A DNA stretch of 64,000 nucleotides from contig JARLIM010000018.1 of the NCBI GenBank assembly GCA_031291725.1, forward strand, positions 1-64,000, read 5' to 3'. The position numbers and the translations under genes were made by a program. Source of the DNA: Acetobacteraceae bacterium (GTDB lineage Bacteria > Pseudomonadota > Alphaproteobacteria > Acetobacterales > Acetobacteraceae). The stretch's first letter is position 1; each line of letters starts with the position of its first letter. Positions 36,751 to 49,765 of this stretch are shown one piece after another. The notes beneath the pieces were generated by a model. That model had not been told where the DNA came from, did not search any database, and saw nothing but the letters and a program-made list of their open reading frames with translations.

Positions 36751-37701
36751 TCAGGCGCGCTCGAACACCACAGTCTCCGGCTGATCGGTGCCGATCACCG
36801 ACCACACCGTCACCGGACCCGCGCTGTTGTTGCGGAACCAATGCGGACGGCCGGCCGGGTTGAGCACCAGATCGCGCGGGCCGAGTTCCATCTCCACGCG
36901 CTCGTCACCCTCCTGCCACCCCACGGTCAGCGTGCCTTCCAGCACCATGAAGGCATCTTCCACATCGCGCACATACGGCTTCACGCCGACACCGGCCGGC
37001 ACGCCGAGCATCTCCTTGCGGCAGGTGGACGATTGCACACCGCCGGGGCCGACATAGATTTTGCGGTTGAAGCCCGCCGCATCCCAGAGCGTCGGCTGCT
37101 CGGTGTGGCGGATGACCATTTTCGCCATGATCGACTGCAACGGATGCGCGCCCTGCGGATCGAACGGGATCGCCTTGCCGGGCTCGGCACCGAAGCGGCG
37201 CGAGAGTTCAACGTCGTCGCCGTTCTTCGGATGATAGAGATAGACCGGCGGCAGCGGCTTGCCGGCATCGACGGAAATCGACATCAGCACCGGCTCGATG
37301 CCGTCATTGCGAAAGCCGTGGCCGATGTCGCGGGCGTTGAGGATCATGTCCTTCGGGCCAAGCTTGATCTCGACCACCTCGCCCTGCTGTTCCCAGCCCA
37401 CGGTGAGCACGCCGCTGATGATGAGGAAGGATTCCTCCACCTCATGCGAATGGCAGGCGGCGAATTTGCCAACCGGCTTGTGGATCAGGCTGACGGTGAA
37501 ATGCTCGGGCTTGAGCGTGCCCGGCTCACCCACTTTCGGCGACCCGCCCGCGCCGACATAGCGCATCTGGGCGCGGTCGAGATCGGGAAAGCCGACATTG
37601 CCGGGGAAGGCCGCCCAGTCGAACGTCTTGCTGACATGGCGAACCACGTTGCGCTGAAGATCACCGCGCAGTTGAGAGGGAGGTGAGGTCATGATATTCA
37701 C
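36751..37701 (-). CDS. Bicupin protein, gentisate-dioxygenase-like
   Basis: This 316-residue protein has two cupin domains. The N-terminal one (about residues 70-145) keeps a metal motif, HSHEVEESFLIISG with a later His in GHGFRND. The C-terminal one (about 215-300) has YVRDVEDAFMVLEG and lacks the HxH pair, so probably only one domain holds metal. This is the layout of gentisate dioxygenase-like bicupins, but the family is broad and the substrate is not assigned. The start is a GTG at 37701 with AAAGGA 9-10 bases before it. An ATG at 37692 is the alternative. It is the last gene of the 14-gene minus-strand array. Confidence 0.75.
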   Translation of the reverse strand: MNIMTSPPSQLRGDLQRNVVRHVSKTFDWAAFPGNVGFPDLDRAQMRYVGAGGSPKVGEPGTLKPEHFTVSLIHKPVGKFAACHSHEVEESFLIISGVLTVGWEQQGEVVEIKLGPKDMILNARDIGHGFRNDGIEPVLMSISVDAGKPLPPVYLYHPKNGDDVELSRRFGAEPGKAIPFDPQGAHPLQSIMAKMVIRHTEQPTLWDAAGFNRKIYVGPGGVQSSTCRKEMLGVPAGVGVKPYVRDVEDAFMVLEGTLTVGWQEGDERVEMELGPRDLVLNPAGRPHWFRNNSAGPVTVWSVIGTDQPETVVFERA

Positions 37702-37721
37702 GGCAAGGCATCCTTTCTGGG

Positions 37722-38087
37722 TCAGAGGCCGTGTTCATCGACAACGGCGTATTGGAAGAAATTTTCGTGTCGGCTGTCGTAGAGCGTCACCGAGGATCCA
37801 CCGCCCGCACGGCCGCTGAAATGTGCGCCAGCCCCCGGATCGAAGCCGGCAAACCCCACATCATCCTCCAGAATGATCGAGATCGGCGCGGCTGGCTCCG
37901 GCAGAAGGATCGCCCCATCCGTCACCCGGATCCGCATCCCGGTGTGCTGGTCGATGAAACCGTCTGGCGTGGGGGTGATATGGAACGTCTCACCCGTGCC
38001 GAGGGCGTGAATCATCGGCGGGCACGTGCCACTGCGCAGCCGGTGCGCCTCCACGGCGATGATGCGGCGGATGTCGGGCTGGATCAT
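37722..38087 (-). CDS. Uncharacterised 121-residue protein in the Rieske operon
   Basis: I do not recognise a family. The 121-residue protein is soluble, with no signal or membrane segment. It has a Gly-rich beta-strand region (DDVGFAGFDPGAGAHFSG) and a C-terminal LYDSRHENFFQYAVVD. The start overlaps the stop of the extradiol-type VOC gene (ATGA), so the two are translationally coupled. Placement between the VOC enzyme and the bicupin suggests a small subunit or accessory factor for one of them. Confidence 0.7.
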   Translation of the reverse strand: MIQPDIRRIIAVEAHRLRSGTCPPMIHALGTGETFHITPTPDGFIDQHTGMRIRVTDGAILLPEPAAPISIILEDDVGFAGFDPGAGAHFSGRAGGGSSVTLYDSRHENFFQYAVVDEHGL

Positions 38088-39037
38088 GGGTGGCCACGCC
38101 CAGAATCGTCACGGGCGAGGGTCTGGCGGCGGGTGGTGCCGTCGATACCGCCAGCGATGGCCCATTCGGCGAAAAGTTCCGGCGCCCGCACGAAGGATTG
38201 CGCCTGCCAGGCCTCGGTGCAGAAATCGTCGTCGGCATAGTATTCCAGCGGCGCGCAGAGCGGGTTGTGGAAATACCAGAAATAGGCCGAGGAGATCGGG
38301 TGACGGCCCGGCCCGATTTCGGTCTTCCAGCCCTTCTTGCTCATCGCAATCCCGCCGCCGATCACCTCATGCACGTCCGAGACGGTGAACGCCACATGGT
38401 TCACCCCCGGCTTGCCCGCGCGGTTGACGACGAACAGATTGTGATGCTCGCCGCGCAGCTTGCAGCGCAGGAACATCCCAAAGCCGGGATATTGATCGCT
38501 GACCGTGAAGCCCATCAGCCTGGTGTAGAAATCGCACATCGCCTCGAAATCGGCGGCAAACAGCACGACATGGCCGATCTTGACCGGCTCGGCGCGCTCA
38601 TAGACCGGCGAGCGGGCGTCGATCCGGTTGGGCACGCCGGGGCCGTTGGGCAGCGTGGGGGCGACGGCGAGCTTGCGACGACGACTGACGCGCAGCCCGA
38701 CGGACAGACCATTGGGATCGTTCACCCAGGCCGTGCCGTCCGCATCCAGGCGCGGCACGATGCCCGCCGCCTGAAAGCGGACGATGGTGGCGTCCAGACT
38801 GGCTTGATCCTCCGCCCCCCAGACCACCTGCACCACGGTGTTGCCCGCCTCGATGGCCGCGGGCAGATCGGCATCGCCCCGCTTGCGGACGAACACCTCG
38901 CCGCCGTCACGGGTCTGATAGGCAAGGCGATCATCGGCGGCGGAGATCGGCGTGGTGCCCCAATCATCGAGAAAGCGCTGCGCTTCCCCGATATCGGCGA
39001 CACCGAAGGTAATGGCATCGATGCCTGTGAAGCTCAT
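38084..39037 (-). CDS. Extradiol ring-cleavage dioxygenase-like VOC protein, two domains
   Basis: This 317-residue, two-domain vicinal oxygen chelate protein has the organisation of type I extradiol dioxygenases such as BphC. The C-terminal domain keeps a plausible Fe(II) facial triad: His in KIGHVVLFA, His in GVNHVAFTV and Glu in PLEYYAD. It is therefore likely to be an active meta-cleavage or related enzyme acting after the Rieske oxygenase. The start at 39037 (MSFTGIDAITFGVAD) matches the fold. The open frame reaches 39232 but lies in the oxygenase gene. Confidence 0.83.
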   Translation of the reverse strand: MSFTGIDAITFGVADIGEAQRFLDDWGTTPISAADDRLAYQTRDGGEVFVRKRGDADLPAAIEAGNTVVQVVWGAEDQASLDATIVRFQAAGIVPRLDADGTAWVNDPNGLSVGLRVSRRRKLAVAPTLPNGPGVPNRIDARSPVYERAEPVKIGHVVLFAADFEAMCDFYTRLMGFTVSDQYPGFGMFLRCKLRGEHHNLFVVNRAGKPGVNHVAFTVSDVHEVIGGGIAMSKKGWKTEIGPGRHPISSAYFWYFHNPLCAPLEYYADDDFCTEAWQAQSFVRAPELFAEWAIAGGIDGTTRRQTLARDDSGRGHP

Positions 39038-39048: not shown

Positions 39049-40125
39049 CTATGCCCGACCCGGCCAAGTCTTGCCCGCCTTGAGGAGGTCCGTCAGTTGG
39101 CCGCGTGCCTGCTGTGCCAAATAGCGGCGCAGACGGATCAGCCCGGCATCGTGCTGATAGAGCATCTCGCCCTTCTCCAGCCCCAAGCCGCAGCCATCCA
39201 TCAACTCGCGATCCTGCTCCAGCACCGCCCAATGGCGCGGCTCCAGCACGGTCTTGTAGAGGAAGCGCCAGGTGTCGCGCTGCCAGCCGGAGAGCTTGCG
39301 GAAGCGGAAGAAGAAATTGGCCGAGTTGGTGTCATCGATGGGGGTTGAAATCGCGACAATGCCGAAATTGCCGCCCGGCCCGCCGGTTTTCGGATAGGGA
39401 ATTTCCAGGCGGACGAACATCACGCTTTGATCGATCAGATCGCTCCAATCGAAATTCACATCGCGCTGGCCGACCTTCTCGAACAGGAAGCCGTTCTCAT
39501 GGTCCTTGGTGGCAAACACCGCCTTGATGTCGCCATTGGCCATCGAATGCGACTTCGCATGCAGGAAGGTGCCGTGCATCGGGTCCATCAGATTGTCATA
39601 GACGTAGCGCCAGGAGGCATTCCAATCGGCGTAGCAGAGGAAGGAGCTGAATTCGTCGCTGTCCAATTGCTCGGGGGCGATGAATGGGGCGGGTTCCAGA
39701 TGCAGCTCGTCGCCGAACCAGACGAAGATCGCACCGGCCACTTCCACGGCTGGGAAGGTTTTCACCGCCTTCTTGCCTTCCAGCGCACAGCCCGGCTGGC
39801 CGGGCACCGAGAGCACGGTGCCATCCTTGCCGATGTCGATGCCGTGATAGATGCAGCGCAGCCGGTCGCCTTCGTTCACACCGCGCGACAGGGCAACGGA
39901 GCGGTGCGGGCAGCGGTCGGTCTGGACGTGTGCGACACCTGCCGCATCGCGCCACACCACGAGTTTTTCGCCGAGACGGACGATGCCCACCGGCTTGCCC
40001 GCCGCCTCGACAAAGCGCGACGGCAGAATGGGCCACCAGCGATTGCGCAGGCCGGTGGCGAGATAGCCCTGAATGTCCTGATCGGTGGGCGCGGGGGCGG
40101 CGGGCGAGAGAGTTGCGGCGCTCAT
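39049..40125 (-). CDS. Rieske non-heme iron aromatic oxygenase, oxygenase component
   Basis: This 358-residue oxygenase has an N-terminal Rieske [2Fe-2S] site CPHR...CIYHG (C-x-H-x17-C-x2-H) and a catalytic Fe site NLMDPMHGTFLH (D-x2-H-x4-H). Size and pattern match the single-component-type oxygenases such as vanillate O-demethylase or phenoxybenzoate dioxygenase, which use a VanB-type reductase. That reductase is encoded two genes upstream. The start at 40125 has GGGAGC upstream. The reaction could be ring hydroxylation or O-demethylation. The substrate is not recognisable from the sequence. Confidence 0.9.
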   Translation of the reverse strand: MSAATLSPAAPAPTDQDIQGYLATGLRNRWWPILPSRFVEAAGKPVGIVRLGEKLVVWRDAAGVAHVQTDRCPHRSVALSRGVNEGDRLRCIYHGIDIGKDGTVLSVPGQPGCALEGKKAVKTFPAVEVAGAIFVWFGDELHLEPAPFIAPEQLDSDEFSSFLCYADWNASWRYVYDNLMDPMHGTFLHAKSHSMANGDIKAVFATKDHENGFLFEKVGQRDVNFDWSDLIDQSVMFVRLEIPYPKTGGPGGNFGIVAISTPIDDTNSANFFFRFRKLSGWQRDTWRFLYKTVLEPRHWAVLEQDRELMDGCGLGLEKGEMLYQHDAGLIRLRRYLAQQARGQLTDLLKAGKTWPGRA

Positions 40126-40129
40126 CGGA

Positions 40130-40357
40130 TTACGCTCCCAGTTCATGCATCAGGGCGGTGAAGTTCTCAGCCGTCCACACGCCGCCCAATTGCGGGCGCA
40201 CGCGGGAATTGTTGAGGGCGGCGATGAGCGCATCGAGTTCGTAATGCCCCTTGCCGAAGGCGGCTTCGAGCACATCGGCCAGCGACATTTCCCAGTCGCT
40301 CGGCGGGCGGGTGCGTGACTGCACCGGGTTCAGGTAGGGGAAACGATATGTCGTCAC
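40130..40357 (-). CDS. Small protein with recombinase-like helix-turn-helix, inside the Rieske operon
   Basis: A 75-residue protein is encoded between the reductase and the oxygenase, 4 bases before the oxygenase start. Its second half, ELDALIAALNNSRVRP then GGVWTAENFTAL, resembles the winged segment of serine recombinases (LN..G...P.GG.W....). A recombination role is very unlikely in this setting. A small accessory or regulatory protein of the oxygenase is more plausible. Similar small proteins next to Rieske oxygenases exist in databases as recombinase-like HTH proteins (recalled). Confidence 0.7.
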   Translation of the reverse strand: MTTYRFPYLNPVQSRTRPPSDWEMSLADVLEAAFGKGHYELDALIAALNNSRVRPQLGGVWTAENFTALMHELGA

Positions 40358-40383: not shown

Positions 40384-41328
40384 TCAGAGATCGAGAACGA
40401 GGCGGGGGGATTTGGCGCGCGAGACACAGACCATCATCGTCTCATTGGCCAGTTGCTCGGCGGTGGACAGGATGCTGTCGCGGTGATCCACCTGCCCCTC
40501 CAGCACCCGGCATTCGCAACTGCCGCAAATGCCCTGCTCGCAGGACAGCGGCACCTGAATGCCGGCATCGTGCAGCACCTGCACCACCGACTTGTCGGGC
40601 GGCACGGTCAGGGTGAGGCGCGAGCGGGCGCAAACCAGTTCGAAGCCGCCGGAGATTTCATCCTCCGGGCGGCTTCGGGCGGCGAACCATTCGAAATGCA
40701 CGCTGCCGTCCGGCCAATGCCGCGAATGGGTTTCCACTTCGAGCATCAGTTTCTCGGGACCGCAGCAATAAATCTGCGTGTCGGGCTCCACTGTGGCGAG
40801 GCGGGCTTCCACGTCCAGGCGGGTGCCGAGGGCGGAGGCGTGCAGCACCACATCGCCACCGAGCGAGCGCGCTTCGGCAAGAAACGGCGCATCCTCATGG
40901 CGGCGGACGCAAAACAGCAGCGTCCATTTCGCCCCGCGCGCGTTGGCCTCGCGCAGCATTGGCAGCATCGGGGTGATGCCGATGCCGCCTGCGATGAACA
41001 GATAATGCGGGGCGGGCAGCAGTGGGAAATTGTTGCGCGGCGTGCTCACGTCGAGCAGCGCGCCGGGGCGCAATTGGCGATGGACCATCGACGTCACAGC
41101 ACCCCCCTCCACCAGACGGATGCCGAGGCGATAGGTCTTGCGATCCGCCGGGTCGCCACACAGCGAATATTGTCGGCTCTGCCCGCCGGGCAGGTGCAGA
41201 TCGACATGCGCACCGGCGCTGAATGCCGGCAGATCGCCGCCATCGGGCGCGCAGAGATCGAGCGACAGCACGCCCTCGGCCTCCCAGGTCATCCGGCGCA
41301 GGCGTAAGGTGAGCAGGTTGTCGGTCAT
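40384..41328 (-). CDS. VanB-type ferredoxin-NAD(P)H reductase of the Rieske oxygenase
   Basis: This 314-residue reductase passes electrons from NAD(P)H through FMN and a plant-type [2Fe-2S] cluster to the oxygenase. Order of domains: flavin-binding (QYSLCGDPADRKTYRL), nucleotide-binding (FIAGGIGITPML) and C-terminal ferredoxin with C-x4-C-x2-C in SCEQGICGSCECRV plus a distal Cys in MMVCVSRAK. This is the phthalate dioxygenase reductase/VanB architecture. The start at 41328 overlaps the aldehyde dehydrogenase stop by 4 bases. Confidence 0.92.
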   Translation of the reverse strand: MTDNLLTLRLRRMTWEAEGVLSLDLCAPDGGDLPAFSAGAHVDLHLPGGQSRQYSLCGDPADRKTYRLGIRLVEGGAVTSMVHRQLRPGALLDVSTPRNNFPLLPAPHYLFIAGGIGITPMLPMLREANARGAKWTLLFCVRRHEDAPFLAEARSLGGDVVLHASALGTRLDVEARLATVEPDTQIYCCGPEKLMLEVETHSRHWPDGSVHFEWFAARSRPEDEISGGFELVCARSRLTLTVPPDKSVVQVLHDAGIQVPLSCEQGICGSCECRVLEGQVDHRDSILSTAEQLANETMMVCVSRAKSPRLVLDL

Positions 41329-42833
41329 GCGCCGTCTTCCTTCAGGCAATCCGCCGCCCAGGGATGCGGGCGCTGGCTCATGTCGAGATAGATCGATTTC
41401 TGGCTCATCCAGGCACGGATGCCCTCGCGGCCCTTCTCGCGCCCCAGCCCGCTCTCCTTCACGCCGCCGAACGGGGTGGCGATGGAGAATTGCTTGTAGG
41501 TGTTGATCCACACCGTGCCCGCCTCAATCGCGCGCCCCACCCGCCAGGCGCGGGTGAAATCGGCGGTGTAGATGCCGCAGGCGAGGCCGTATTCATTGTC
41601 GTTGGCCTGCGCGATCACATCGGCCTCGTCGTCAAACGGCAGCACGACGAGCACCGGGCCAAACACTTCGTCGCGGCAAATCCGCGCCGTGTTGCTCACG
41701 CCCGCGAGGATGGTGGGCAGATAATACGTCCCGGCATCGTATTCCTCACCTGTCGGGCGCCCGCCGCCGGTGAGAAGCTCGGCCCCCTCGGCCAGGGCGC
41801 GGCGGACATGATCCTCCACCTCGGCGCGATGATCGGCGTGAATCAACGGGGCGACCTGGGTGCCCGCCTTGAAGGAGTGGCCAACACGCAGGCGTTTGGT
41901 GGCGGCGATCAGTTTGGCGGTGAATGCGTCATAGACGCGGCGCTGCACGAACAGGCGCGAGCCTGCGATGCAGGATTGCCCGGTGGAGGAAAACACCCCG
42001 AACATCACCCCCGCCACCGCCAGATCCAGATCGGCATCGGCAAAGACGATGGTGGGCGATTTGCCGCCGAGTTCGAGAGAGACGGCCATGAATTTCTCCG
42101 CCGCCTTGCGCGCAATGCCGCGCCCCACCTCGGTGCCGCCGGTGAAGGAGACCTTGCGGATCGCCGCATGCGTGACCAACCGTTCGCCGACAATCGACCC
42201 CGCACCGGGCAATGTGGAGAACAACCCTTTCGGCAGCCCCGCCGCCTCGATGATCCGGGCCAGTTCCAGGCAGACCAGCGGGCTCCAGGAAGCGGGCTTG
42301 AGCAGGATGGCGTTTCCCGCCGCCAAGGCCGGAGCCACCTTCTGTGCGTCTGACGCGATGGGGGAATTCCACGGGGTAATGCCTGCCGTCACCCCCAGCG
42401 GTTCATGCACCGAGAAGGTGAGGTAATCGCCACGCGGCGGGGTCAGCGTGTCTTCCATCGTCTCCAGGGCGGCGGCCATATAGCGGAACGTGCCCGCCGC
42501 ACTCATCGCCAAGGCGCGGGTTTCGGCGATGGTCTTGCCGGTGTCGCGCGATTGCACGAAGGCGATGCGCTCCACCGCCTCGGAAATGCCGTTTGAAATC
42601 CGATACAGATAACCCGCCCGCTCATGCGGTCGCAGACCGCGCCATGCCGGATCGTTGACGGCAGACTGCGCGCGATCGATGGCGAGATCGACATCCTCCA
42701 CTGACGCGCCATGCAGCGTGCGGTTCAGCGTGCCATCGGCGGGGAAATGCGAGCGGATCGGCGCACCACGGCCCTGTCGCCATTCGCCTGCGATATACAA
42801 TTGATCGGCTGGTAGATCGTATGCGCTCACCAT
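41325..42833 (-). CDS. Aldehyde dehydrogenase
   Basis: This 502-residue NAD(P)-dependent aldehyde dehydrogenase has catalytic Glu in SLELGGKSP and catalytic Cys in STGQSCIAGSR, with TPWNSP (oxyanion Asn region) and the end motif FGGVKESGLGRE. It probably oxidises an aldehyde released by the neighbouring ThDP enzyme or after ring cleavage. It lies between the aspartate dehydrogenase-like gene (7-base gap) and the reductase gene (4-base overlap). Confidence 0.93.
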   Translation of the reverse strand: MVSAYDLPADQLYIAGEWRQGRGAPIRSHFPADGTLNRTLHGASVEDVDLAIDRAQSAVNDPAWRGLRPHERAGYLYRISNGISEAVERIAFVQSRDTGKTIAETRALAMSAAGTFRYMAAALETMEDTLTPPRGDYLTFSVHEPLGVTAGITPWNSPIASDAQKVAPALAAGNAILLKPASWSPLVCLELARIIEAAGLPKGLFSTLPGAGSIVGERLVTHAAIRKVSFTGGTEVGRGIARKAAEKFMAVSLELGGKSPTIVFADADLDLAVAGVMFGVFSSTGQSCIAGSRLFVQRRVYDAFTAKLIAATKRLRVGHSFKAGTQVAPLIHADHRAEVEDHVRRALAEGAELLTGGGRPTGEEYDAGTYYLPTILAGVSNTARICRDEVFGPVLVVLPFDDEADVIAQANDNEYGLACGIYTADFTRAWRVGRAIEAGTVWINTYKQFSIATPFGGVKESGLGREKGREGIRAWMSQKSIYLDMSQRPHPWAADCLKEDGA

Positions 42834-42840: not shown

Positions 42841-43635
42841 TCAGATCAGCACGCGGGCGGCGCGGCTGAGCACCGCATGCGCCACGCTGTAGCCCGCCAT
42901 CAGCGAGGTTTTCGGATTGGCCGCCGAGGCGATGCCTTCCAATTGAATGGAGAAATCGCTGCAACCGGAGCGCACGGCGATCTCGTGCCGGTTGCGGGTG
43001 ATGCCGGGATCGGCCACCAACCGAACCCGCGTGGCATCGAACCCAGCGCCGGCCAGCGCAATCGCCGCCGCCACATTGGCGTTTTGCGGATAAGTGCGTG
43101 CAGCCTCTCGCGCCGAGCCTTCGAAGAAGCACACCGGCGCGGTGAGTCCGGCCAGATCGACAGCCTGCTCGGCCTGGGTGCCACGCCATGCGGCGGGTGG
43201 TTTGCTGCCGGTGTAGACCACGTCCTGCAACCCGCTCAATTTCGCCGCCGCCAGCGCATCCAGCCCGCCCACCGCGCCCGCAGGCAGGATCAGCCGAGAG
43301 CCGCCACGCTGGGCGGCGTTGTGCAATTCCGTCAGCAGGGCGTCATCGGCGAGGGCCCCCACCGAGATCACGATCAGATCGCAGCCGCTCGCCAACACCG
43401 CAGCGCCATGCGCCCGCACCGCCGCATGGCCCGCGCATTCGGCGACCAGATCGGGTTTGGTGGCGAGGAATTCGGCAAGCTCGGTGTGGGCGGTCACTTT
43501 GGTGGCGAACCAAGCCTCAATCGCCTGGCCCGGCGTGCGGCTGAGCACCGCCAGATGATCGAGCGGTAGGCCGGACAGCGCGGCGAGCACCGTCTGTGTC
43601 ATCCCGCCTGCACCGATGATGCCCAGTCTGCGCAT
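42841..43635 (-). CDS. L-aspartate dehydrogenase-like protein (NadX / DUF108 family)
   Basis: This 264-residue protein has an N-terminal nucleotide-binding motif (LGIIGAGGMTQTVL) and the aspartate dehydrogenase domain with GSKPPAAWRGT and the catalytic His in GITRNRHEI. In NAD biosynthesis such enzymes make iminoaspartate from aspartate. Here the gene sits in a catabolic operon between the ThDP enzyme and an aldehyde dehydrogenase, with no nadA or nadC, so a different imine or keto substrate is likely. Its start overlaps the ThDP enzyme stop by one base. Confidence 0.82.
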   Translation of the reverse strand: MRRLGIIGAGGMTQTVLAALSGLPLDHLAVLSRTPGQAIEAWFATKVTAHTELAEFLATKPDLVAECAGHAAVRAHGAAVLASGCDLIVISVGALADDALLTELHNAAQRGGSRLILPAGAVGGLDALAAAKLSGLQDVVYTGSKPPAAWRGTQAEQAVDLAGLTAPVCFFEGSAREAARTYPQNANVAAAIALAGAGFDATRVRLVADPGITRNRHEIAVRSGCSDFSIQLEGIASAANPKTSLMAGYSVAHAVLSRAARVLI

Positions 43636-45317
43636 CAATTCTTGCCCCCCGCAGCCCCGGCTGGCGGGCCAGCGAAGCTTTCGGCGAAGGGGCCGATGGC
43701 GATCATGTCGATTTCGATCATCTGCGGCCCCGACGCCGCCAACGCCGCCGCCAGCGCCGCCGGGAAATCCGCCACATCGCTCACCCGGCGATGCGGCAGG
43801 CCGACGGCTTGGCAGATCAGGCTGAAATCGGGCGTCAGGATATCGGCATAGACGTGCCTGCCGCCATATTGCGCATCCTGAATGTTGCGGATCACGCCAT
43901 AGCCACGGTCATTCATCAGCACGAACACCGCCTCGGCCTGCATCTCCACGGCGGTGGCGAGTTCGCCGATCATCAGCTGCGCCCCGCCATCGCCCAGCAG
44001 CGTGATCGGTTTGCCAACCCCGGCAAGCGCCGCGCCGATGCCCATCGCAATGCCCTGTCCGATGCCGCCGCCAAGGGCATGCACGCCCAGATGCGGGGCG
44101 GCGAGGCGGATATAGCGGTTGCCGAATGTGCTGTTGGAGATCGTCACATCGCGCACCCAAGGATGCCGCCCGGCATGGACGCGCTCGCTCAACGTGTCGG
44201 CAACGCTGGCATAGGGGCCGAGCAGGCGGCGCAGCGCCGCTTCGGAACGCTGCCGGGCGGGTTCGATCTCAGCGAGGAAATCGGCATCGGTGGCAAGCGT
44301 GGCGGGCAGCCGGGCGAGCAGCCCTTCCAGCACCAGCCTCGCATCGCCCTGGATGAAGAAATCCACCGGATAATTGCGTCCGGCCTGACTGCCCTCGGCA
44401 TCCACCTGGGCGAGCAGCTTCGGCAGCTTCATCTTGTTGTTGCGCGTCTCGTTGCCGCGCAGCCGGGAGCCGACAACGAGCATGAAATCGGCGCGGTCAT
44501 AGATCGCCTGCGCCTCGGGCGTCATGTTGAAGGCACCCAGCGAACGCGGATGGCCCTCCGGCACCACGGCGCGGCCATTGGTGCTGGTGACGGCGGCGAA
44601 ACCGCGCGCCACCAATTCCGTTGCCGCCGCCGATGCCATGCGCGCGCCACCGCCGAGCCAGATCAACGGTCGCTTGGACTGCAATACCAGCGCCGCCAAT
44701 TGATCGAGTTGCGCCGGGTCAACCGGGGCAGGCAGCACATTGAGAGTGGCCGGAAAGGCCGGTGCCTTCACCTTCACACGCTGCACATCGACCGGAATTT
44801 CCAACGACACCGGCCCGGTCGGCGCAGCCAGGGCCGCACGGGCGGCGGCGAGCAGGTTGTCCACGGCGGCACTGGGCTCCCACACGCGGATATAGGTTTT
44901 GCTGATGGCTTTCAGCATATCCGGCTGACGCGGCACGTCATGAATGGCCGCCCGGTCGCGATCCATGAAGTCGCGATCGACCTGCGTGGTGATGTGCAGC
45001 ACCGGCGAGCCCGCCGTCAGCGCCTCCACCTGCGAGCCGGCCGCATTGCCCGCCGCCGTGCCGGTGGAGGTGAAGCACACGCCCAGCCCGCCGGTGACGC
45101 GGGCATAGGCGTCGGCCATGTTCATCGCCCCCGCCTCACCGCGCGCCGGCACGAAACGGATGCGGCCCTGGCGCGCGATGGCGTCCAGGATCGGCATGTT
45201 GTGGATCGAGATCACCCCGAATGCGGTGGTGACGCCGATATCGGCCAGCGTGCGGGCGAGCAGATCGCCCACGGCTTCCTCGGCAGCGATGGCGGTGACG
45301 GGGGGGAGGGTGTCCAT
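43635..45317 (-). CDS. Thiamine-diphosphate-dependent enzyme, acetolactate-synthase-like
   Basis: This 560-residue member of the acetolactate synthase/benzoylformate decarboxylase family has catalytic Glu in PARGEAGAMN and the ThDP-Mg motif GDGGAQLMIGELATA ending in MNDRGYG. It is likely a 2-oxoacid decarboxylase or carboligase. The adjacent aldehyde dehydrogenase suggests decarboxylation to an aldehyde. The start is set at 45317 (MDTLPPVTAIAAEEAVGD). The same frame stays open to 46022 through the SDR gene, but that part is not family-like. Confidence 0.87.
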   Translation of the reverse strand: MDTLPPVTAIAAEEAVGDLLARTLADIGVTTAFGVISIHNMPILDAIARQGRIRFVPARGEAGAMNMADAYARVTGGLGVCFTSTGTAAGNAAGSQVEALTAGSPVLHITTQVDRDFMDRDRAAIHDVPRQPDMLKAISKTYIRVWEPSAAVDNLLAAARAALAAPTGPVSLEIPVDVQRVKVKAPAFPATLNVLPAPVDPAQLDQLAALVLQSKRPLIWLGGGARMASAAATELVARGFAAVTSTNGRAVVPEGHPRSLGAFNMTPEAQAIYDRADFMLVVGSRLRGNETRNNKMKLPKLLAQVDAEGSQAGRNYPVDFFIQGDARLVLEGLLARLPATLATDADFLAEIEPARQRSEAALRRLLGPYASVADTLSERVHAGRHPWVRDVTISNSTFGNRYIRLAAPHLGVHALGGGIGQGIAMGIGAALAGVGKPITLLGDGGAQLMIGELATAVEMQAEAVFVLMNDRGYGVIRNIQDAQYGGRHVYADILTPDFSLICQAVGLPHRRVSDVADFPAALAAALAASGPQMIEIDMIAIGPFAESFAGPPAGAAGGKN

Positions 45318-45334: not shown

Positions 45335-46129
45335 TCAAATGAACCGGGACACGCCGCCGGAAACCTCCAGCGCGGCACCGGTGATGTAGCTGGCGGCGGG
45401 TGAGCCCAGGAAAACCACGGCGCGCGCCGCTTCGTCCGGCTCGCCCAGCCGACCGAGCGGAATGCCCTTGGTCTTGGCCAGAGCGGCGATCCAATCGGCG
45501 CGGCTCTGCGCCTGGTCCGGTCGCGCCTCGAACCGGCGCTGCCACTGCCCGGAATCCACCAGCCCCAGCAGGATCGCATTCACCCGAATATGCGGGGCGA
45601 ATTCGGTGGCGAGCGATTTCAACAGGCTCTGCACCCCTGCCCGTGCCGCCGAGGTGCAGACCATATGCGCCTCCGGTTGGGCTGCGAGCAGCGAGTTCAC
45701 GCCGACAATGGCGGGGGCGGTCGAGGCGTCCAGCAGCGGGCGGAAGGCGCGGATCGGCAGGATCTGGCTGAAGAACTTCAGATCGAGCTCCTGCCGCCAA
45801 TCGTCGTCGGTGGTGCTGGCGAAGGTGGAGACACGGCCTTGCCCTGCATTGTTGACCAGCAGATCCAACCGCCCGCCCGACCAGTCCGACACCGAGGCCG
45901 CGAACGCCGCCACCGCATCGCGGTTCAGCACGTCGCATGGCACCGCCAGCAGATTTTCCGGCGCCGCATCGGCCAGCAGCGCCTGCGTCGCCGCCTCCAA
46001 CCGTGCCAGATCGCGCCCGCAAATGGCCACCTTGGCACCTTCGGCGAGCAGGATGCGGGCGGTGGCGAGGCCGATGCCCGATGTGCCGCCGGTGACCACC
46101 GCAGAGCGGCCGGAATATCCCAGATTCAT
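45335..46129 (-). CDS. SDR-fold protein with replaced catalytic Tyr and Lys
   Basis: This 264-residue short-chain dehydrogenase-fold protein has an intact cofactor loop (VVTGGTSGIGLATA) and NNAG motif (LLVNNAGQG). Where classical enzymes have Y-x3-K it reads T-S-A-A-R (VCTSAARAG), followed in register by LLKSLATEF. The catalytic Ser region is GVNSLLAAQ. Loss of Tyr and Lys makes normal alcohol dehydrogenation doubtful. It could bind cofactor and catalyse another step, or regulate. It overlaps IclR by 4 bases. Confidence 0.83.
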   Translation of the reverse strand: MNLGYSGRSAVVTGGTSGIGLATARILLAEGAKVAICGRDLARLEAATQALLADAAPENLLAVPCDVLNRDAVAAFAASVSDWSGGRLDLLVNNAGQGRVSTFASTTDDDWRQELDLKFFSQILPIRAFRPLLDASTAPAIVGVNSLLAAQPEAHMVCTSAARAGVQSLLKSLATEFAPHIRVNAILLGLVDSGQWQRRFEARPDQAQSRADWIAALAKTKGIPLGRLGEPDEAARAVVFLGSPAASYITGAALEVSGGVSRFI

Positions 46130-46950
46130 GCCACCACCTTCAAATTCGGATGTGGATTGCGTCGGCTCCAGCCGAGCTGTCGTGAAATTTCCTCGGCCGC
46201 CGCCACCACCGCCCGACCGATCTCGGCACGGCGCTCCTCGCCCGCGAAGGCCGCCACCTGACCGCTGATATTGATCGCCGCCACCGGCTGCCCGGCGGCA
46301 TCCAGAATGGGTGCTGCGACGGAGCTGATGCCGGCTTCGAAGAACTCATCGCTCCAGGCAAGCCCGGCCTCACGGTCCTGATCCAGGCGCAGACGCAGTT
46401 GCGGCAGATTGACCGCCGTGTGCGCGGTGACGGCCTCCAGCGGCTGATCGGCGAAGATCCGCGCCACGTCCTGCTGCGGCATATGCGCCAGAATGATGCG
46501 GCCCATCGTGGTCGCATGCGCGGGCAGACGGCTGCCGACGCGGATATTGCTCACGAAACTCAGATTGGGCGTGCGGCGAACGAGATAGACGATCTCCCGC
46601 CCGTCCAACTGCCCCAGATGGGTGGACAGGCCCAAAGTCTCGGCCAGATGGGTCAGCACCGGAATGGCCGCCTGCACCATGTCGTCGGAATAAAAGGCGT
46701 GGGCCGCCAGAGCGATCAGGCCGCGCCCGATGCGCCAGCCCGGAATGTCGCTGCCTCGCGGCTCGATCAGCCGCTCCGCCTCCAGCGTGTGCAGCAGACG
46801 CAGCAAGGTGGTGCGGTTGATGTCCAAGGCACGGGCGGTGCGCGCCATGTTCGTCACCGGATCGCCATCGGCAATCTGCCGCAACAGCCGGGCGGCGCGT
46901 TGCACCGGCGGGGAGAGATAGTCGCTGTCGGAGGTCGGGGTGTCAGACAT
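46126..46950 (-). CDS. IclR family transcriptional regulator, embedded in the catabolic array
   Basis: This 274-residue regulator has an N-terminal winged helix (NMARTARALDINRTTLLRLLHTLE) and the C-terminal effector domain (SVAAPILDAAGQPVAAINISG). It overlaps both neighbours (alpha/beta hydrolase by 8 bases, SDR by 4), so it is co-transcribed with the pathway it probably controls. The likely operator region is the MFS/2-oxoacid oxidoreductase gap near 49921-49977. Confidence 0.9.
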   Translation of the reverse strand: MSDTPTSDSDYLSPPVQRAARLLRQIADGDPVTNMARTARALDINRTTLLRLLHTLEAERLIEPRGSDIPGWRIGRGLIALAAHAFYSDDMVQAAIPVLTHLAETLGLSTHLGQLDGREIVYLVRRTPNLSFVSNIRVGSRLPAHATTMGRIILAHMPQQDVARIFADQPLEAVTAHTAVNLPQLRLRLDQDREAGLAWSDEFFEAGISSVAAPILDAAGQPVAAINISGQVAAFAGEERRAEIGRAVVAAAEEISRQLGWSRRNPHPNLKVVA

Positions 46951-47752
46951 GCTGTGCCTCCATCACCAATGCGCCAAGCAGCCGCGCGACGGCTGCGGGA
47001 TCTTCCTGCGGCAGGGCATGGCCTGCGCCGGGGACCAGGGTGAAGCTGTGTTTGTTCGGGGCGGCGCCATAGGTGGCCTGCGCATTGGCGGGCGGTGTGA
47101 CCGCATCCTCGGCCCCGACGGCGACCAGCACGGGTGCGGCGATCTGCGCCACATCGGCCAGCAGCGTGCCGGCGCCCAATGCGCGGACTGCCTGCCCGTA
47201 GCCCGGCATCCGCACAGCCGCCATCGCCCGACGCACGCCCGCCAGAATGTCCGGCTTGTCGTCTGGCTGAAAGACCAGCTTGGCAGCCCGGGTGGCGGCG
47301 AATGCGGTGGGGCCGAGGCGCACGAGGTCGTCCACCCGCCCCTGCACCGCCGCTGGCAGCGCCTCGCCGGGCGGGATGCCGTAGCCCAAGGCGGGCGAGA
47401 GCAATGCCAACGCCGCCACGCGCTGCGGAAAGCGCTGCGCAAACCGGGCGGCGAACAACGTGCCGAGCGAATGCCCGGCCAGTACCACGCGCGGCATTCC
47501 CAGCGCGTCGAGCAGGGCCGCGAGGCTGCTGGCGTAGTCGTCCGGCGTCGGCGACGGATTGGCCAAGGCCGCCGACGAATCATAGCCCGGTGCGTTCCAG
47601 GCGATGACGTCGATGGCGGGAGGCAGCGCGGACATCATCCGCACCCAACTCTGCGCATCGCTGCCAATGCCGTGCAGCAGGATCAGCGGCAGTGACGTGC
47701 CGGGGCGACGCAGGGCAAACAGGCCCGCGCGATGAAGATGCTGCGGCGTCAT
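46943..47752 (-). CDS. Alpha/beta hydrolase
   Basis: This 269-residue alpha/beta hydrolase has oxyanion strand LILLHGIGSD, nucleophile elbow GHSLG, acid in VGAEDAVTPP and His in GAGHALPQ. In aromatic pathways such enzymes hydrolyse meta-cleavage products (MhpC, BphD) or enol lactones. With an extradiol-like enzyme in the same array, C-C bond hydrolysis of a ring-fission product is a reasonable inference. It starts within the end of the upstream SDR gene (4-base overlap). Confidence 0.85.
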   Translation of the reverse strand: MTPQHLHRAGLFALRRPGTSLPLILLHGIGSDAQSWVRMMSALPPAIDVIAWNAPGYDSSAALANPSPTPDDYASSLAALLDALGMPRVVLAGHSLGTLFAARFAQRFPQRVAALALLSPALGYGIPPGEALPAAVQGRVDDLVRLGPTAFAATRAAKLVFQPDDKPDILAGVRRAMAAVRMPGYGQAVRALGAGTLLADVAQIAAPVLVAVGAEDAVTPPANAQATYGAAPNKHSFTLVPGAGHALPQEDPAAVARLLGALVMEAQHV

Positions 47753-48516
47753 GTGAACACGAACCCCGCCGCCACCGGCAGCGTCTGCCCGGTGAGCGCC
47801 AAGGCTCCTTCGGTGAGAAGAAACACGATGGTCGCCGTGATGTCTTCCGGCATTTGCGGCCCCGGCACGGCGCGGCCGTTTTCATAGAAGGCGTGGCGCT
47901 CGGCGGGCACGTATGCGGTGGCCTCGTTGCGCATGATGCCGGGGGCCACCGCCGTGATCCCAACGCCGCGCGGCCCGAGTTCACGCGACAATGATCGTGT
48001 CATCGCCATCACGGCCCCCTTGCTGGCGACATAGGCGAGCAGGCGCGGCGCCCCCCACAAGGCGGTGTCCGACGCCAGATTGACGATGCGCCCGCCACCG
48101 GATTGCACCAGCAACGGCGCCATCGCGCGCGTCATCAGCCAGGTGCCGCGCACATTGACCTGCTGCACGCGATCCCAGGTTTCCAGTGTGATCTCGTCGA
48201 ACATCGGCCCGCCAATGCCGGTGGCGATGGCGGCGTTGTTGACCAGACCGTGCAGCACGCCCTCATGCGCCGCGATGTTGTCAGCCAAGGCGGTGATGCT
48301 GTCCGGATCGGCGAGATCGACCGGCACGAAGCGCACCGCAGCGCCGGTCGCTGCCAACGCCGCCGTGGTGGCATGGCCTGCTTCGGCGAGGATATCGGCC
48401 AGGATCAACCGCGCCCCCGCCGCCGCACAGGCCTCGGCAATCGCCCGCCCCACGCCACGGGCAGCGCCGGTGACGAGGACGGTTCGCCCGGCCAGGGACT
48501 GCACCGGATTAAGCAT
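47749..48516 (-). CDS. SDR family oxidoreductase
   Basis: This 255-residue classical SDR has all catalytic elements: LVTGAARGVGRAIAE, LVNNAAIA, Ser in NLASDTAL and YVASK. The start at 48516 (MLNPVQSLAGRTVLV) is chosen because the longer frame lies within the MFS gene. It overlaps the MFS stop by 8 bases. Unlike the second SDR in this array it should be an active dehydrogenase, for example on a dihydrodiol or a side-chain alcohol. Confidence 0.9.
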   Translation of the reverse strand: MLNPVQSLAGRTVLVTGAARGVGRAIAEACAAAGARLILADILAEAGHATTAALAATGAAVRFVPVDLADPDSITALADNIAAHEGVLHGLVNNAAIATGIGGPMFDEITLETWDRVQQVNVRGTWLMTRAMAPLLVQSGGGRIVNLASDTALWGAPRLLAYVASKGAVMAMTRSLSRELGPRGVGITAVAPGIMRNEATAYVPAERHAFYENGRAVPGPQMPEDITATIVFLLTEGALALTGQTLPVAAGFVFT

Positions 48517-49765
48517 TCCGCTCACCCCGCAGCAGAATGCCACCACAGACAAAGACCAGCGCCTGCGTGCCGATGAGGGCGGCGAAACCGGCATAGAACC
48601 CCGCCGCCGAACCGCTGGAGGCGGTGACGCTGCCGATCACGCTGCCCATCACCGCGGGCATCAGCCCGGCGGCAAGGCTGCCGATGCCGTTGACCACGCC
48701 AAAGGCGCTGCCCGCATGTTCAGGCCGTGCGCAATATTGCACCGTGCTCGGGAAAGCCGGGCTGGCCAGACCCCAGCAGAAATTCGCACCGATCAGACAA
48801 TAGGTCGCCACATAGGGGTCTGCCACATTGATCGCCCCCATCACACAGGCCGACACACCGACAGCGGACGCCATGAAGATCAGCGGCACCTGACGGCGTT
48901 CCAGCTTGTCGATGATGAAGCCACCGATCAGCACCGCCACCATCGCGGCATATTGCGGCAGCGAGGCAAGCCAGCCCATTTCACGCAGCGAGAAGCCGCG
49001 CGCTTCCTTCAGGTAGCTCGGCAACCAGCTGCTGCTGCCCCAGAGATAGGCGAGGAAGGCGCAGGTCATCACCGTCATCAGCCAGACATGGCGCGTGTGT
49101 GTGGCGCCACGGAAAATCTCCGCCACCCGCCCGAACGCATCGCCCAGCGAGCGCGGCTTGCTGTCATATTTCGGACCGAAATGCGGCATGCGGATAAAGG
49201 CCAGCACCAGCGGCACACCGACGATAATGTTCAGCGCGCCCAGCAGCACGAACGACATTTCCCAGTGATAGCTCGCCATGATCAGCCCCACGAAGGGAAA
49301 GCCGATCGCCAGGCCCAGCCCGGTGCCCATATTGACGAACGAATTCGGCCGCCCGTTCTCATGGTCCTCGAAATGCGACTTGATGTAGGACGAGGCGAGC
49401 GAGAACAACGGCCCCTCGGCAAAGCCGAGCAACAGGCGCGAGACCAGCAGAGTCTCGTAATTGGTGAACAACGGCGACATCGCCGTCACACCGCCCCAGA
49501 CCACCAATCCGCCGATCAACCCTTTGCGCACACCGAACAGCGTCACGCAGAACGGGGTGAACAGGAAAGCCGAGATGCCGTAGCCCAGCATGAACGCGGT
49601 GGCCAAAAAGCCCTGGCTGGCACGATCGCTGGCAGCGATGTGCATATGCTCCAGAAACGATTTATCGGTGATCAGAACCGCGATGTTGATTCGGTCTATA
49701 TAAGAAATCGTCACCAACAGCAGCATTGTAACAGCACCGGCCCAGCGCAGCTCTTTCGTTATCAT
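48509..49765 (-). CDS. MFS transporter, anion:cation symporter type
   Basis: This 418-residue transporter with about 12 hydrophobic segments starts at 49765 behind AAAGGAGGGGGC. The N-terminus TISYIDRINIAVL and the loop YIKSHFEDHENGRPNS are typical of the ACS family (hexuronate, phthalate and hydroxyphenylacetate importers). As first gene of the 14-gene array it probably imports the starting compound. The in-frame ATG at 49828 has no ribosome-binding site. Confidence 0.88.
   Translation of the reverse strand: MITKELRWAGAVTMLLLVTISYIDRINIAVLITDKSFLEHMHIAASDRASQGFLATAFMLGYGISAFLFTPFCVTLFGVRKGLIGGLVVWGGVTAMSPLFTNYETLLVSRLLLGFAEGPLFSLASSYIKSHFEDHENGRPNSFVNMGTGLGLAIGFPFVGLIMASYHWEMSFVLLGALNIIVGVPLVLAFIRMPHFGPKYDSKPRSLGDAFGRVAEIFRGATHTRHVWLMTVMTCAFLAYLWGSSSWLPSYLKEARGFSLREMGWLASLPQYAAMVAVLIGGFIIDKLERRQVPLIFMASAVGVSACVMGAINVADPYVATYCLIGANFCWGLASPAFPSTVQYCARPEHAGSAFGVVNGIGSLAAGLMPAVMGSVIGSVTASSGSAAGFYAGFAALIGTQALVFVCGGILLRGERNA

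What the first reader, a model, noticed from the sequence alone, without database searches (positions are those of the whole stretch)
36751..49765. Fourteen-gene catabolic array with Rieske oxygenase, extradiol-type VOC enzyme, ThDP enzyme and NadX-like dehydrogenase: no known pathway fits
All 14 minus-strand genes overlap or lie within 26 bases, so they should be one unit. The enzyme set is importer, active SDR, C-C hydrolase, degenerate SDR, ThDP enzyme, aspartate-dehydrogenase-like protein, aldehyde dehydrogenase, Rieske oxygenase with VanB-type reductase, 75-aa HTH-like protein, extradiol VOC, 121-aa unknown and bicupin. I cannot match this combination to any pathway I know. It could degrade an unrecognised aromatic, perhaps with an amino or 2-oxo side chain (NadX-like plus ThDP enzyme plus ALDH).
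Basis: partly seen in the sequence, partly recalled or inferred. Interest (0 to 1): 0.72.

Follow-up and report, generated by a model that had tools for sequence, protein, structure and literature searches.

The report
Candidate kynurenic acid degradation gene cluster
This block of 14 bacterial genes is found, reshuffled, in soil, marine and hospital bacteria, and it likely encodes the long-missing genes for breaking down kynurenic acid, a tryptophan waste product that acts on the nervous and immune systems of animals; the substrate is predicted from enzyme chemistry and has not been tested.

Summary
In detail: 14 minus-strand genes, 36751-49765, never more than 26 bases apart; the unnamed 14th is an IclR regulator. 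The set is not unique. Its core (alpha/beta hydrolase, VOC dioxygenase, unusual SDR, ThDP enzyme, aspartate dehydrogenase, aldehyde dehydrogenase, usually a cupin) recurs in Alpha-, Beta- and Gammaproteobacteria and one Streptomyces. Rieske oxygenase, SDR1 and HTH_62 form a module: of 51 fetched loci 44 have the Rieske gene in or just outside the stretch, 41 of them with a full SDR1; SDR1 never occurs without it. Five genomes and one plasmid have the core without a close Rieske but with a NicC-like flavin monooxygenase. The 'degenerate' SDR is conserved, R163 in 73 of 73. My best reading is kynurenate (and xanthurenate) catabolism: dihydroxylation, extradiol cleavage, side-chain reduction, ThDP decarboxylation, aldehyde oxidation, pyridone opening, with aspartate dehydrogenase saving the ring nitrogen. 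That route was described biochemically around 1960; I recall no assigned genes, and ten literature searches showed none in what they listed. The substrate is inferred. Confidence 0.5, lowered from 0.55 after a control weakened the two-entry argument.

The parts
48509..49765 (-). MFS importer, first gene of the array (418 aa); substrate entry predicted
   Evidence: coordinates; NCBIfam best match TIGR00893, 147 bits, below its cut-off of 395
47749..48516 (-). SDR1 (255 aa), intact S149/Y162/K166; predicted cis-dihydrodiol dehydrogenase
   Evidence: best NCBIfam: pyridoxal 4-dehydrogenase, 195.6 bits, below cut-off 325; residues in 48 of 48 aligned sequences; in 51 loci never without the Rieske gene
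46943..47752 (-). alpha/beta hydrolase (269 aa), triad S95/D216/H245; predicted C-C or amide hydrolase that opens the pyridone
   Evidence: Pfam Abhydrolase_1 91.5 bits; triad in 74 of 74; nearest solved: esterase 4uhc, then HsaD; 3-oxoadipate enol-lactonase ranks tenth
46126..46950 (-). IclR-family regulator (274 aa), not named in the finding
   Evidence: NCBIfam PcaR/PcaU/PobR subfamily 147 bits, below cut-off 284.75
45335..46129 (-). SDR2 (264 aa), TGxxxGIG motif but T159/R163 in place of YxxxK; predicted reductase of the ring-fission product's side-chain C=C
   Evidence: NCBIfam PRK07062 386 bits, cut-off 266; R163 in 73 of 73, T159 in 72 of 73
43635..45317 (-). ThDP enzyme (560 aa), PRK07064 family; predicted 2-oxo-acid decarboxylase
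   Evidence: 751 bits, cut-off 495; E61, GDG 442-444 and N469 in 92 of 92
42841..43638 (-). aspartate dehydrogenase, NadX-like (265 aa); predicted to convert iminoaspartate to aspartate
   Evidence: 291 bits, cut-off 177; N216 and H218 in 71 of 71; the only copy found in the assembly
41325..42833 (-). aldehyde dehydrogenase (502 aa), E254/C288; predicted to oxidise the formylethyl intermediate
   Evidence: Pfam Aldedh 529 bits; best NCBIfam matches, all below cut-off, include BADH 467.8 and HpaE 455.8 bits; residues in 57 of 57
40384..41328 (-). VanB-type FAD/NAD/2Fe-2S reductase (314 aa) for the oxygenase
   Evidence: Fer2, NAD_binding_1, FAD_binding_6
40130..40357 (-). HTH_62 protein (75 aa), accessory of the Rieske module
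   Evidence: Pfam PF20552 87.3 bits; with loci extended, present in 43 of 44 Rieske-positive and 1 of 7 Rieske-less loci
39049..40146 (-). Rieske oxygenase alpha subunit, VanA_C type (365 aa); predicted kynurenate 7,8-dioxygenase
   Evidence: Rieske 60.1 and VanA_C 41.1 bits; CPH/CxYH, N185/D188/H191/H196/D312 in 79 of 79
38084..39037 (-). two-domain VOC extradiol dioxygenase (317 aa); predicted 7,8-dihydroxykynurenate ring-cleavage enzyme
   Evidence: Glyoxalase 52.4 bits; H156/H214/E265 in 65 of 65 homologues, H199, H246 and Y255 in 64 of 65 each
37722..38087 (-). 121-aa protein, no known family; predicted small beta barrel
   Evidence: no Pfam/NCBIfam match; model pLDDT 90.8; no PDB match at E <= 0.001
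36751..37701 (-). bicupin (316 aa); H84/H86/E90/H128 set in the first domain, second domain without HxH; predicted role in pyridone ring opening
   Evidence: Cupin_2 62 bits; H84, E90 and H128 invariant and H86 nearly so in 17 sequences; model pLDDT 86, nearest folds MncA, oxalate decarboxylase and quercetin 2,4-dioxygenase, TM 0.5-0.6
49920..49978 (.). imperfect 28-nt inverted repeat, possible operator between the array and the divergent genes
   Evidence: 79% complementary arms, 3 nt apart; inner GTTCATATATGAAC found once in the window, 0.01 expected

Best explanation
The 14 genes are one version of a conserved gene cluster that likely degrades kynurenate (4-hydroxyquinoline-2-carboxylate), and in its flavin-monooxygenase versions likely xanthurenate, by way of 7,8-dihydroxykynurenate. 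Shown here: gene content, enzyme families, conserved catalytic residues, the Rieske-SDR1-HTH_62 module, core-only genomes without it, and co-inheritance. Inferred, each step: (1) MFS imports the acid. (2) The Rieske oxygenase with the VanB-type reductase, helped by HTH_62, makes the 7,8-cis-dihydrodiol. (3) SDR1 re-aromatises it to 7,8-dihydroxykynurenate. (4) The VOC enzyme cleaves the benzene ring next to the ring fusion (8,8a), giving 5-(3-carboxy-3-oxopropenyl)-4,6-dihydroxypicolinate. (5) SDR2, which lacks the ketone-reducing Tyr/Lys pair, reduces the side-chain C=C. (6) The ThDP enzyme decarboxylates the resulting 2-oxo acid to the formylethyl compound. (7) ALDH oxidises it to 5-(2-carboxyethyl)-4,6-dihydroxypicolinate. 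(8) The alpha/beta hydrolase and the metal-binding cupin open the pyridone; atoms N1-C2(COOH)-C3-C4 leave as iminoaspartate, the rest as a five-carbon diacid. (9) Aspartate dehydrogenase reduces iminoaspartate to aspartate, saving the nitrogen. IclR controls the unit. Steps 5 and 8 are the least certain.
For: Every core enzyme finds one place in the route, and the route needs a 2-oxo-acid decarboxylase and an aldehyde dehydrogenase; here the order is ThDP-AspDH-ALDH. Rieske and SDR1 go together as a dioxygenase and its dihydrodiol dehydrogenase should: in 51 loci with at least 7 kb on both sides, both lie inside the stretch in 37; in 4 more (L051, L055, L075, L078) the Rieske lies just outside it with SDR1 beside it; in 3 (L003-L005) an SDR1 fragment lies at the very edge of the stretch; SDR1 alone in 0. 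Six core loci (five genomes searched whole and one Vibrio plasmid: L033, L036, L042, L050, L056, L084) have no close Rieske but a flavin monooxygenase, a family whose nearest solved relatives are tropone 2-monooxygenase and 6-hydroxynicotinate 3-monooxygenase, so a substrate already carrying one hydroxyl could skip the dihydrodiol step. VOC metal and catalytic residues are kept. SDR2 has a conserved non-standard site. AspDH is not there for NAD synthesis: no NadA was found in the assembly, and the two best NadB-like hits, whose ORFs I read, look like SdhA (a third hit of 276 bits was not read). RidA, an imine-deaminase family (recalled), sits in 5 of 51 loci, two of which (L003, L004) lack AspDH, and in L091 and weakly L154. 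Caballeronia NK8 plasmid pNK84 carries the cluster followed by a second Rieske-ThDP-VOC set with a three-subunit molybdenum hydroxylase, the enzyme class that turns quinaldate into kynurenate (class role recalled). No 2-hydroxypentadienoate hydratase or aldolase is listed inside the cluster in 11 annotated records (these gene tables are incomplete).
Against: No experiment, paper or named sequence links any of these genes to kynurenate. The idea of two alternative entries is weaker than it first looked: four of the ten loci that seemed Rieske-less have the Rieske module about 1.3-2.5 kb beyond the fetched stretch, and the monooxygenase is in 23 of 44 Rieske-positive against 6 of 7 Rieske-less loci (p 0.12), so it may serve a later step; its best NCBIfam match, below cut-off, is 3-hydroxybenzoate 6-monooxygenase. 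SDR1 distances follow ThDP (0.75) better than Rieske (0.56). The classical organism was Pseudomonas, yet no Pseudomonas cluster turned up: none among the 31 plasmid records with a close SDR2, none among the organism names shown for 120 listed of 2166 homologues, and of 599 records with a Rieske match 16 were Pseudomonas but none was among the 30 best listed; Pseudomonas chromosomes were not searched by name. No tryptophan dioxygenase was found in the window's assembly, so the acid would have to come from outside. The nearest solved relative of the NK8 molybdenum enzyme is 4-hydroxybenzoyl-CoA reductase; quinoline 2-oxidoreductase ranks fourth. The alpha/beta hydrolase resembles meta-cleavage hydrolases, and on pCAR3 a hydrolase-SDR2-SDR remnant lies beside hydratase, aldolase and acetaldehyde dehydrogenase genes. 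AspDH is absent in-stretch from 8, ALDH from 7 and VOC from 6 of 51 loci, some possibly by truncation or by my ORF calls. The RidA/AspDH swap is not significant (p 0.17). Loci are related and were chosen by similarity to the window's ThDP, so p values are optimistic.
Confidence: 0.5

Rival explanations
1. The cluster degrades another bicyclic nitrogen heteroaromatic acid (for example a quinaldate, hydroxyquinoline-carboxylate or related plant alkaloid) by the same logic of dihydroxylation, extradiol cleavage, ThDP decarboxylation and aldehyde oxidation, with kynurenate not the true substrate.
For: All enzyme assignments carry over; the NicC-like monooxygenase and the molybdenum hydroxylase next to the second set on pNK84 suggest more than one substrate; the VOC exists in two divergent types.
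Against: An aspartate-shaped fragment requires N, carboxylate on C2 and oxygen on C4, which kynurenate and xanthurenate have as they stand.
Confidence: 0.2
2. A monocyclic aromatic with an amino-acid side chain is degraded by ordinary meta-cleavage: Rieske+SDR1 or the flavin monooxygenase gives a catechol, VOC cleaves it, the alpha/beta hydrolase releases aspartate, and AspDH deaminates it.
For: The layout resembles hca/mhp (recalled); the hydrolase is near HsaD/BphD-type hydrolases and enol-lactonases; AspDH would act on its named substrate; on pCAR3 a hydrolase-SDR2-SDR remnant lies beside hydratase, aldolase and acetaldehyde dehydrogenase genes.
Against: No hydratase or aldolase for the five-carbon product is listed in the cluster in 11 annotated records (tables incomplete); ThDP enzyme, SDR2 and ALDH have no job.
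Confidence: 0.15
3. The ThDP enzyme is a carboligase or lyase rather than a decarboxylase and the array handles a non-aromatic or methoxylated compound, with the Rieske enzyme acting as an O- or N-demethylase like VanA.
For: Rieske belongs to the VanA_C group, which holds demethylases (recalled for the group); nearest ThDP structures are BbmA and acetolactate-synthase-like enzymes.
Against: A demethylase does not need SDR1, yet Rieske and SDR1 travel together; the VOC enzyme keeps the full extradiol site.
Confidence: 0.08
4. AspDH makes NAD precursors and is only a neighbour of a smaller aromatic operon.
For: It passes the aspartate dehydrogenase equivalog model PRK13303.1-2 (234 bits, cut-off 226).
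Against: No NadA found in the assembly, 92% complete; AspDH distances track those of ThDP, SDR2, hydrolase and ALDH, rho 0.77-0.82; present in 43 of 51 loci.
Confidence: 0.04

Closest known systems
Classical Pseudomonas kynurenate degradation (Taniuchi and Hayaishi 1963; Horibata et al. 1961; titles seen in reference lists, papers not read)
   Same: Predicted intermediates and order of reactions; recalled products include glutamate, alanine, acetate and CO2, compatible with a five-carbon diacid plus aspartate/oxaloacetate.
   Different: That pathway is defined by activities in Pseudomonas extracts without genes (EC 1.14.99.2, 1.3.1.18, 1.13.11.10 recalled as orphan activities); this is a gene set without activities.
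lum cluster for lumichrome degradation (commentary PMC12752717, first of two parts read)
   Same: N-heterocycle route joining a ThDP decarboxylase, a multicomponent Rieske dioxygenase and an extradiol dioxygenase.
   Different: lum starts with P450 LumU and hydrolases LumH/I/M, uses a heterodimeric ThDP enzyme and a molybdoprotein before ring opening; the 14 genes hold no P450, no molybdoprotein and one ThDP chain.
hca/mhp 3-phenylpropionate pathway (recalled)
   Same: Rieske plus dihydrodiol dehydrogenase, or flavin monooxygenase, into one extradiol enzyme and an alpha/beta hydrolase.
   Different: mhp continues with hydratase, aldolase and acylating aldehyde dehydrogenase; here ThDP enzyme, SDR2, AspDH and ALDH.
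VanAB vanillate O-demethylase
   Same: Domain make-up of oxygenase (Rieske + VanA_C) and reductase.
   Different: SDR1 travels with the Rieske gene, which a demethylase would not require.

Membership tests
Kynurenate degradation pathway | Ring dioxygenase plus cis-dihydrodiol dehydrogenase in one module | tested here: met
   of 51 loci 44 have the Rieske in or just outside the stretch, 41 with full SDR1 and 3 with an SDR1 fragment at the edge; SDR1 without Rieske in 0; residues intact. Activity not tested.
Kynurenate degradation pathway | Fe(II)/Mn(II) extradiol dioxygenase with intact site | tested here: met
   H156/H214/E265 in 65 of 65 homologues; H199, H246, Y255 in 64 of 65 each
Kynurenate degradation pathway | 2-oxo-acid decarboxylase and aldehyde dehydrogenase | tested here: inconclusive
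   PRK07064 ThDP enzyme and ALDH families present; that the ThDP enzyme decarboxylates is inferred
Kynurenate degradation pathway | Conversion of kynurenate to 7,8-dihydroxykynurenate, and growth on kynurenate | not testable with these tools
   needs enzyme assay or growth test
Classical meta-cleavage pathway (mhp/bph type) | 2-hydroxypentadienoate hydratase and 4-hydroxy-2-oxovalerate aldolase in the cluster | tested here: not met
   absent among the 14 genes and not listed in the clusters of 11 annotated records; the pCAR3 remnant does lie beside such genes
lum lumichrome cluster | P450 first step, heterodimeric ThDP enzyme, molybdoprotein | tested here: not met
   none of the 14 proteins matched a P450 or molybdoprotein family in the tables shown; one ThDP chain carries all three domains
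NadX of NAD biosynthesis | Works with quinolinate synthase NadA | tested here: not met
   NadA model found in 0 of 1 (own genome), while it rings in 12 of 14 control genomes; assembly 92% complete
VanA O-demethylase | Rieske + VanA_C domains | tested here: met
VanA O-demethylase | Methoxyarene demethylation | not testable with these tools
   needs assay

The most novel reading that the evidence does not exclude
This cluster family is the missing genetic basis of bacterial kynurenate and xanthurenate breakdown: kynurenate 7,8-dioxygenase (with HTH_62 as a new oxygenase subunit), the 8,8a-extradiol enzyme, an SDR turned enoyl reductase by loss of its Tyr/Lys pair, a pyridone-opening cupin/hydrolase pair, and a NadX turned into an iminoaspartate-salvaging enzyme. 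It lets Klebsiella, Acinetobacter, Commensalibacter and marine bacteria remove a neuroactive host metabolite.
Probability: 0.42. Interest if true: 0.85.

Novelty: new variant of a known kind. Interest (0 to 1): 0.6.

Why it matters
If right, it gives genes to enzyme activities described around 1960, turns an uncurated gene neighbourhood in common pathogens and environmental bacteria into a testable route for removing kynurenate and xanthurenate, and explains three odd proteins at once: a consistently altered SDR, a NadX without NadA, and a small HTH_62 protein that tracks a Rieske oxygenase. Even if the substrate is wrong, a widespread and, as far as my searches listed, uncharacterised catabolic cluster is described.

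Tried and rejected
Ring_hydroxyl_A search of the own genome for the Rieske found two other genes, not this one, which is of the VanA_C type. IAA (iac/iad), trigonelline, homarine, stachydrine and caffeine routes were considered from memory and dropped because, as recalled, they lack the ThDP + VOC + AspDH combination. The lum route was considered after and dropped. Mining A. baumannii locus tags gave expression hints, no substrate. An E. coli search with the Klebsiella cluster found nothing at megablast sensitivity. The fold search of the 121-aa protein gave no significant match; for the bicupin only the general bicupin fold. The two fused frames P0156 and P0179 were looked at as linkage evidence and set aside: one lacks the SDR N-terminus, the other part of HTH_62, so they may be frame errors. 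My first table of entry modules (11 Rieske-less loci, 10 with the monooxygenase, p 0.015) was corrected: whole-genome searches and new stretches showed that L051, L055, L075 and L078 carry the Rieske module just outside the first stretch; the Rieske/monooxygenase contrast is then not significant (p 0.12). Literature: ten paper searches. The closest ones, kynurenic acid + Rieske + degradation + gene cluster (0 papers) and kynuren + Rieske + extradiol (3 papers, 2 listed, neither on this by title), gave nothing; one search listed 6 of 7, 25 of 51 and 15 of 385 papers, seen as listings, with passages of two. Subscription papers are mostly not in that library.

Full report
1. The observation. Fourteen minus-strand genes fill 36751-49765; successive genes overlap or lie at most 26 bases apart. 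The finding's inventory is right for 13 of them. The fourteenth, at 46126-46950, is an IclR-family regulator. The 75-aa protein is a match to Pfam HTH_62, 87.3 bits against a cut-off of 27. The SDR called active has S149/Y162/K166 in 48 of 48 aligned sequences; the SDR called degenerate lacks YxxxK in all of the 73 sequences aligned (window included, 200 bits or more) but carries its own invariant set, N145, Q151, P152, E153, A162, R163, so it is altered, not decayed.

2. It is a conserved cluster. One scan of 84,980 species genomes with the ThDP enzyme found 113 relatives and returned the best 80 loci; with six annotated plasmid-collection records I mapped 86 loci by phmmer against the window's proteins and some of their neighbours'. 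Further records were read. Of 11 annotated records with the cluster, 10 show SDR, ThDP, AspDH, ALDH, VOC, cupin and hydrolase; the eleventh (L091) is cut by the end of the record, though its frames show AspDH. They include Klebsiella pneumoniae (L088, a record that also holds metK and speAB), Acinetobacter baumannii (L087), Caballeronia, Novosphingobium, Paracoccus and Vibrio nigripulchritudo (L084, no Rieske on the plasmid). Streptomyces chartreusis (L089) has ALDH, VOC, AspDH, hydrolase, cupin, SDR1, SDR2, ThDP, reductase, HTH_62 and Rieske in one run. Identity of the window's Rieske to those of L088, L087 and L089 is 44, 50 and 49%. In an even sample of the phylum HTH_62 matched in 29 of 398 genomes, the window's own included, 22 over the cut-off. 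Of 27 over-cut-off places other than the window I fetched 20, leaving out 7 of the weaker ones; all 20 stretches carry a Rieske match. Some of these stretches lie on contigs already among the 86 loci (for example L156 and L079). Within the window's own genus 2 of 7 other genomes have an over-cut-off HTH_62, so the cluster is patchy.

3. Core and Rieske module. I first counted 51 loci with at least 7 kb on both sides of the ThDP gene (the other loci were dropped as too short): Rieske+SDR1 in 37, Rieske without a full SDR1 in 3 (L003-L005, where an SDR1 fragment lies at the edge of the stretch), SDR1 without Rieske in 0, neither in 11. A control over the genomes or records of those 11 showed that four of them (L051, L055, L075, L078) have a close Rieske (69-73% to the Paracoccus one) about 1.3-2.5 kb beyond the stretch, each in a block bicupin-HTH_62-Rieske-SDR1. 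Corrected: 44 Rieske-positive loci (41 with full SDR1, 3 with an edge fragment) and 7 without a close Rieske: L033, L036, L042, L050, L056 and L010 (whole genomes) and L084 (plasmid only). Of these 7, 6 carry the flavin monooxygenase and L010 shows only ThDP and IclR matches and is unexplained. The monooxygenase is in 23 of the 44, so the contrast is not significant (p 0.12). HTH_62 is in 43 of 44 and 1 of 7; the one is L033, seen by its similarity to the Paracoccus protein, while the Pfam model found none in that genome. Distances of core genes correlate at 0.73-0.90, Rieske with the rest only at 0.36-0.56, SDR1 with the core at 0.56-0.75. The loci are related and picked by similarity to the window, so p values are optimistic. 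Counts inside the 51 stretches: ThDP 51 (by selection), SDR2 49, hydrolase 49, VOC 45, ALDH 44, AspDH 43, some cupin 38.

4. What the enzymes say. The VOC comes in two divergent types that keep the same metal and catalytic residues; the window's was aligned to catechol 2,3- and homoprotocatechuate 2,3-dioxygenases. The flavin monooxygenase (tested on the L093 copy) is nearest to tropone 2-monooxygenase and 6-hydroxynicotinate 3-monooxygenase among solved structures and, below cut-off, to 3-hydroxybenzoate 6-monooxygenase in NCBIfam. Rieske, ThDP, AspDH, hydrolase and ALDH keep their catalytic residues (that these are the catalytic ones is recalled). AspDH cannot feed quinolinate synthesis as far as the 92%-complete assembly shows: no NadA, and the two best NadB-like hits, read, look like SdhA (my reading; the third was not read). 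It is the only AspDH found there.

5. Mechanism. Rieske plus dehydrogenase, followed by an extradiol enzyme, means a dihydroxylated aromatic (inference). The ThDP enzyme and ALDH suggest that a 2-oxo acid made by ring cleavage loses CO2 and becomes an acid. That happens when the cleaved ring is fused to a second one, so that the fission product carries a 2-oxo-butenoate side chain. AspDH points to a nitrogen ring whose N, C2-carboxylate, C3 and oxygenated C4 have the shape of aspartate. Kynurenate meets all of this, and its known bacterial route, as I recall it, runs through 7,8-dihydroxykynurenate, an 8,8a ring fission, side-chain reduction, a formylethyl and a carboxyethyl dihydroxypicolinate. 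Xanthurenate, the 8-hydroxy analogue, would need only one hydroxylation, matching the versions with a monooxygenase and no Rieske. In held papers I saw only titles of the classical work (reference lists) and one sentence that a degradation pathway was suggested in Pseudomonas fluorescens (passage of PMC5610271). The ring-opening step and the sharing of work between hydrolase, cupin and bicupin are guesses.

6. Supporting and opposing context. Caballeronia NK8 pNK84 has the whole cluster and next to it a second ferredoxin-HTH_62-Rieske-ThDP-VOC set followed by a three-subunit molybdenum hydroxylase and an SRPBCC protein. Molybdenum hydroxylases start quinaldate and quinoline degradation (recalled), but this one's nearest solved relative is 4-hydroxybenzoyl-CoA reductase. 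In A. baumannii the matching genes, by order about A1S_0945 to A1S_0958 (my matching), are reported as expressed only in biofilm for A1S_0945, 0946 and 0956 (passages of PMC3758355), with values of 2.18-2.44 under mucin for A1S_0956-0958 (passage of PMC5757984), and a lux insertion in A1S_0947 served for promoter capture (passages of PMC4328036); no substrate is given in these passages. Against the reading: no Pseudomonas cluster was seen, no tryptophan dioxygenase in the own assembly, the hydrolase looks like a meta-cleavage hydrolase, and a hydrolase-SDR2-SDR remnant on pCAR3 lies beside meta-cleavage hydratase and aldolase genes.

7. Verdict. An ordinary kind of thing, an aromatic catabolic operon, with a combination that no source listed by my searches names and a specific, testable substrate hypothesis. 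I rate it a new variant of a known kind, interest 0.60. The odds were lowered (best reading 0.55 to 0.50, novel case 0.45 to 0.42, meta-cleavage rival raised from 0.13 to 0.15) because the control weakened the two-entry argument.

Noticed in passing
window 49978-55000, plus strand: Divergent from the array: a GltD-like Fe-S/NAD(P) oxidoreductase and a 2-oxoacid:acceptor oxidoreductase (alpha 566 bits to TIGR03710, cut-off 483; beta below the cut-offs), sharing the intergenic region with the 28-nt palindrome. Possibly co-regulated.
   Followed up: partly
window 34681-36393, plus strand: FAD monooxygenase of NCBIfam PRK08132 (834 bits, cut-off 416), convergent with the end of the array. Could be a peripheral hydroxylase; not compared with the NicC-like enzyme of the related loci.
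   Followed up: no
window 40130-40357 and stretches L139-L158, L167-L170: HTH_62 (PF20552), named as a recombinase-like HTH, tracks the Rieske oxygenase (43 of 44 versus 1 of 7 loci; 20 of 20 fetched of 27 over-cut-off places have a Rieske). It may be an oxygenase partner rather than a DNA-binding protein.
   Followed up: partly
L090 13281-22512 / L165: Second ferredoxin and HTH_62 (same protein accessions as the first copy), Rieske, ThDP and VOC set beside a three-subunit molybdenum hydroxylase and an SRPBCC protein on pNK84.
   Followed up: partly
L149, L150, L152, L167-L170: In some genomes (L075's contig among them) the block bicupin-HTH_62-Rieske-SDR1 sits as a separate unit next to a TRAP transporter and the monooxygenase-type core, as if added to it.
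   Followed up: partly
window 37722-38087: 121-aa protein with a confident predicted barrel (pLDDT 90.8) and no PDB match at E <= 0.001; beside the window-type VOC in the 6 aligned relatives.
   Followed up: partly
CAKLQH020000010.1 and CAKLQF020000014.1 (phage collection): Contigs labelled Acinetobacter phage MD-2021a carry a Rieske gene 51% identical to the window's; they may be bacterial contigs filed as phage.
   Followed up: no
L164 11157-13609 (pCAR3, Novosphingobium KA1): A hydrolase-SDR2-SDR remnant with no ThDP or AspDH listed nearby, beside hydratase, aldolase and acetaldehyde dehydrogenase genes.
   Followed up: no
L010: High-scoring ThDP homologue (910 bits) with only IclR recognised around it and no close Rieske or HTH_62 in its genome; not explained.
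   Followed up: partly
P0156 and P0179: Single predicted proteins that join the Rieske oxygenase to a truncated SDR and to a truncated HTH_62; possibly frame or deletion artefacts.
   Followed up: partly
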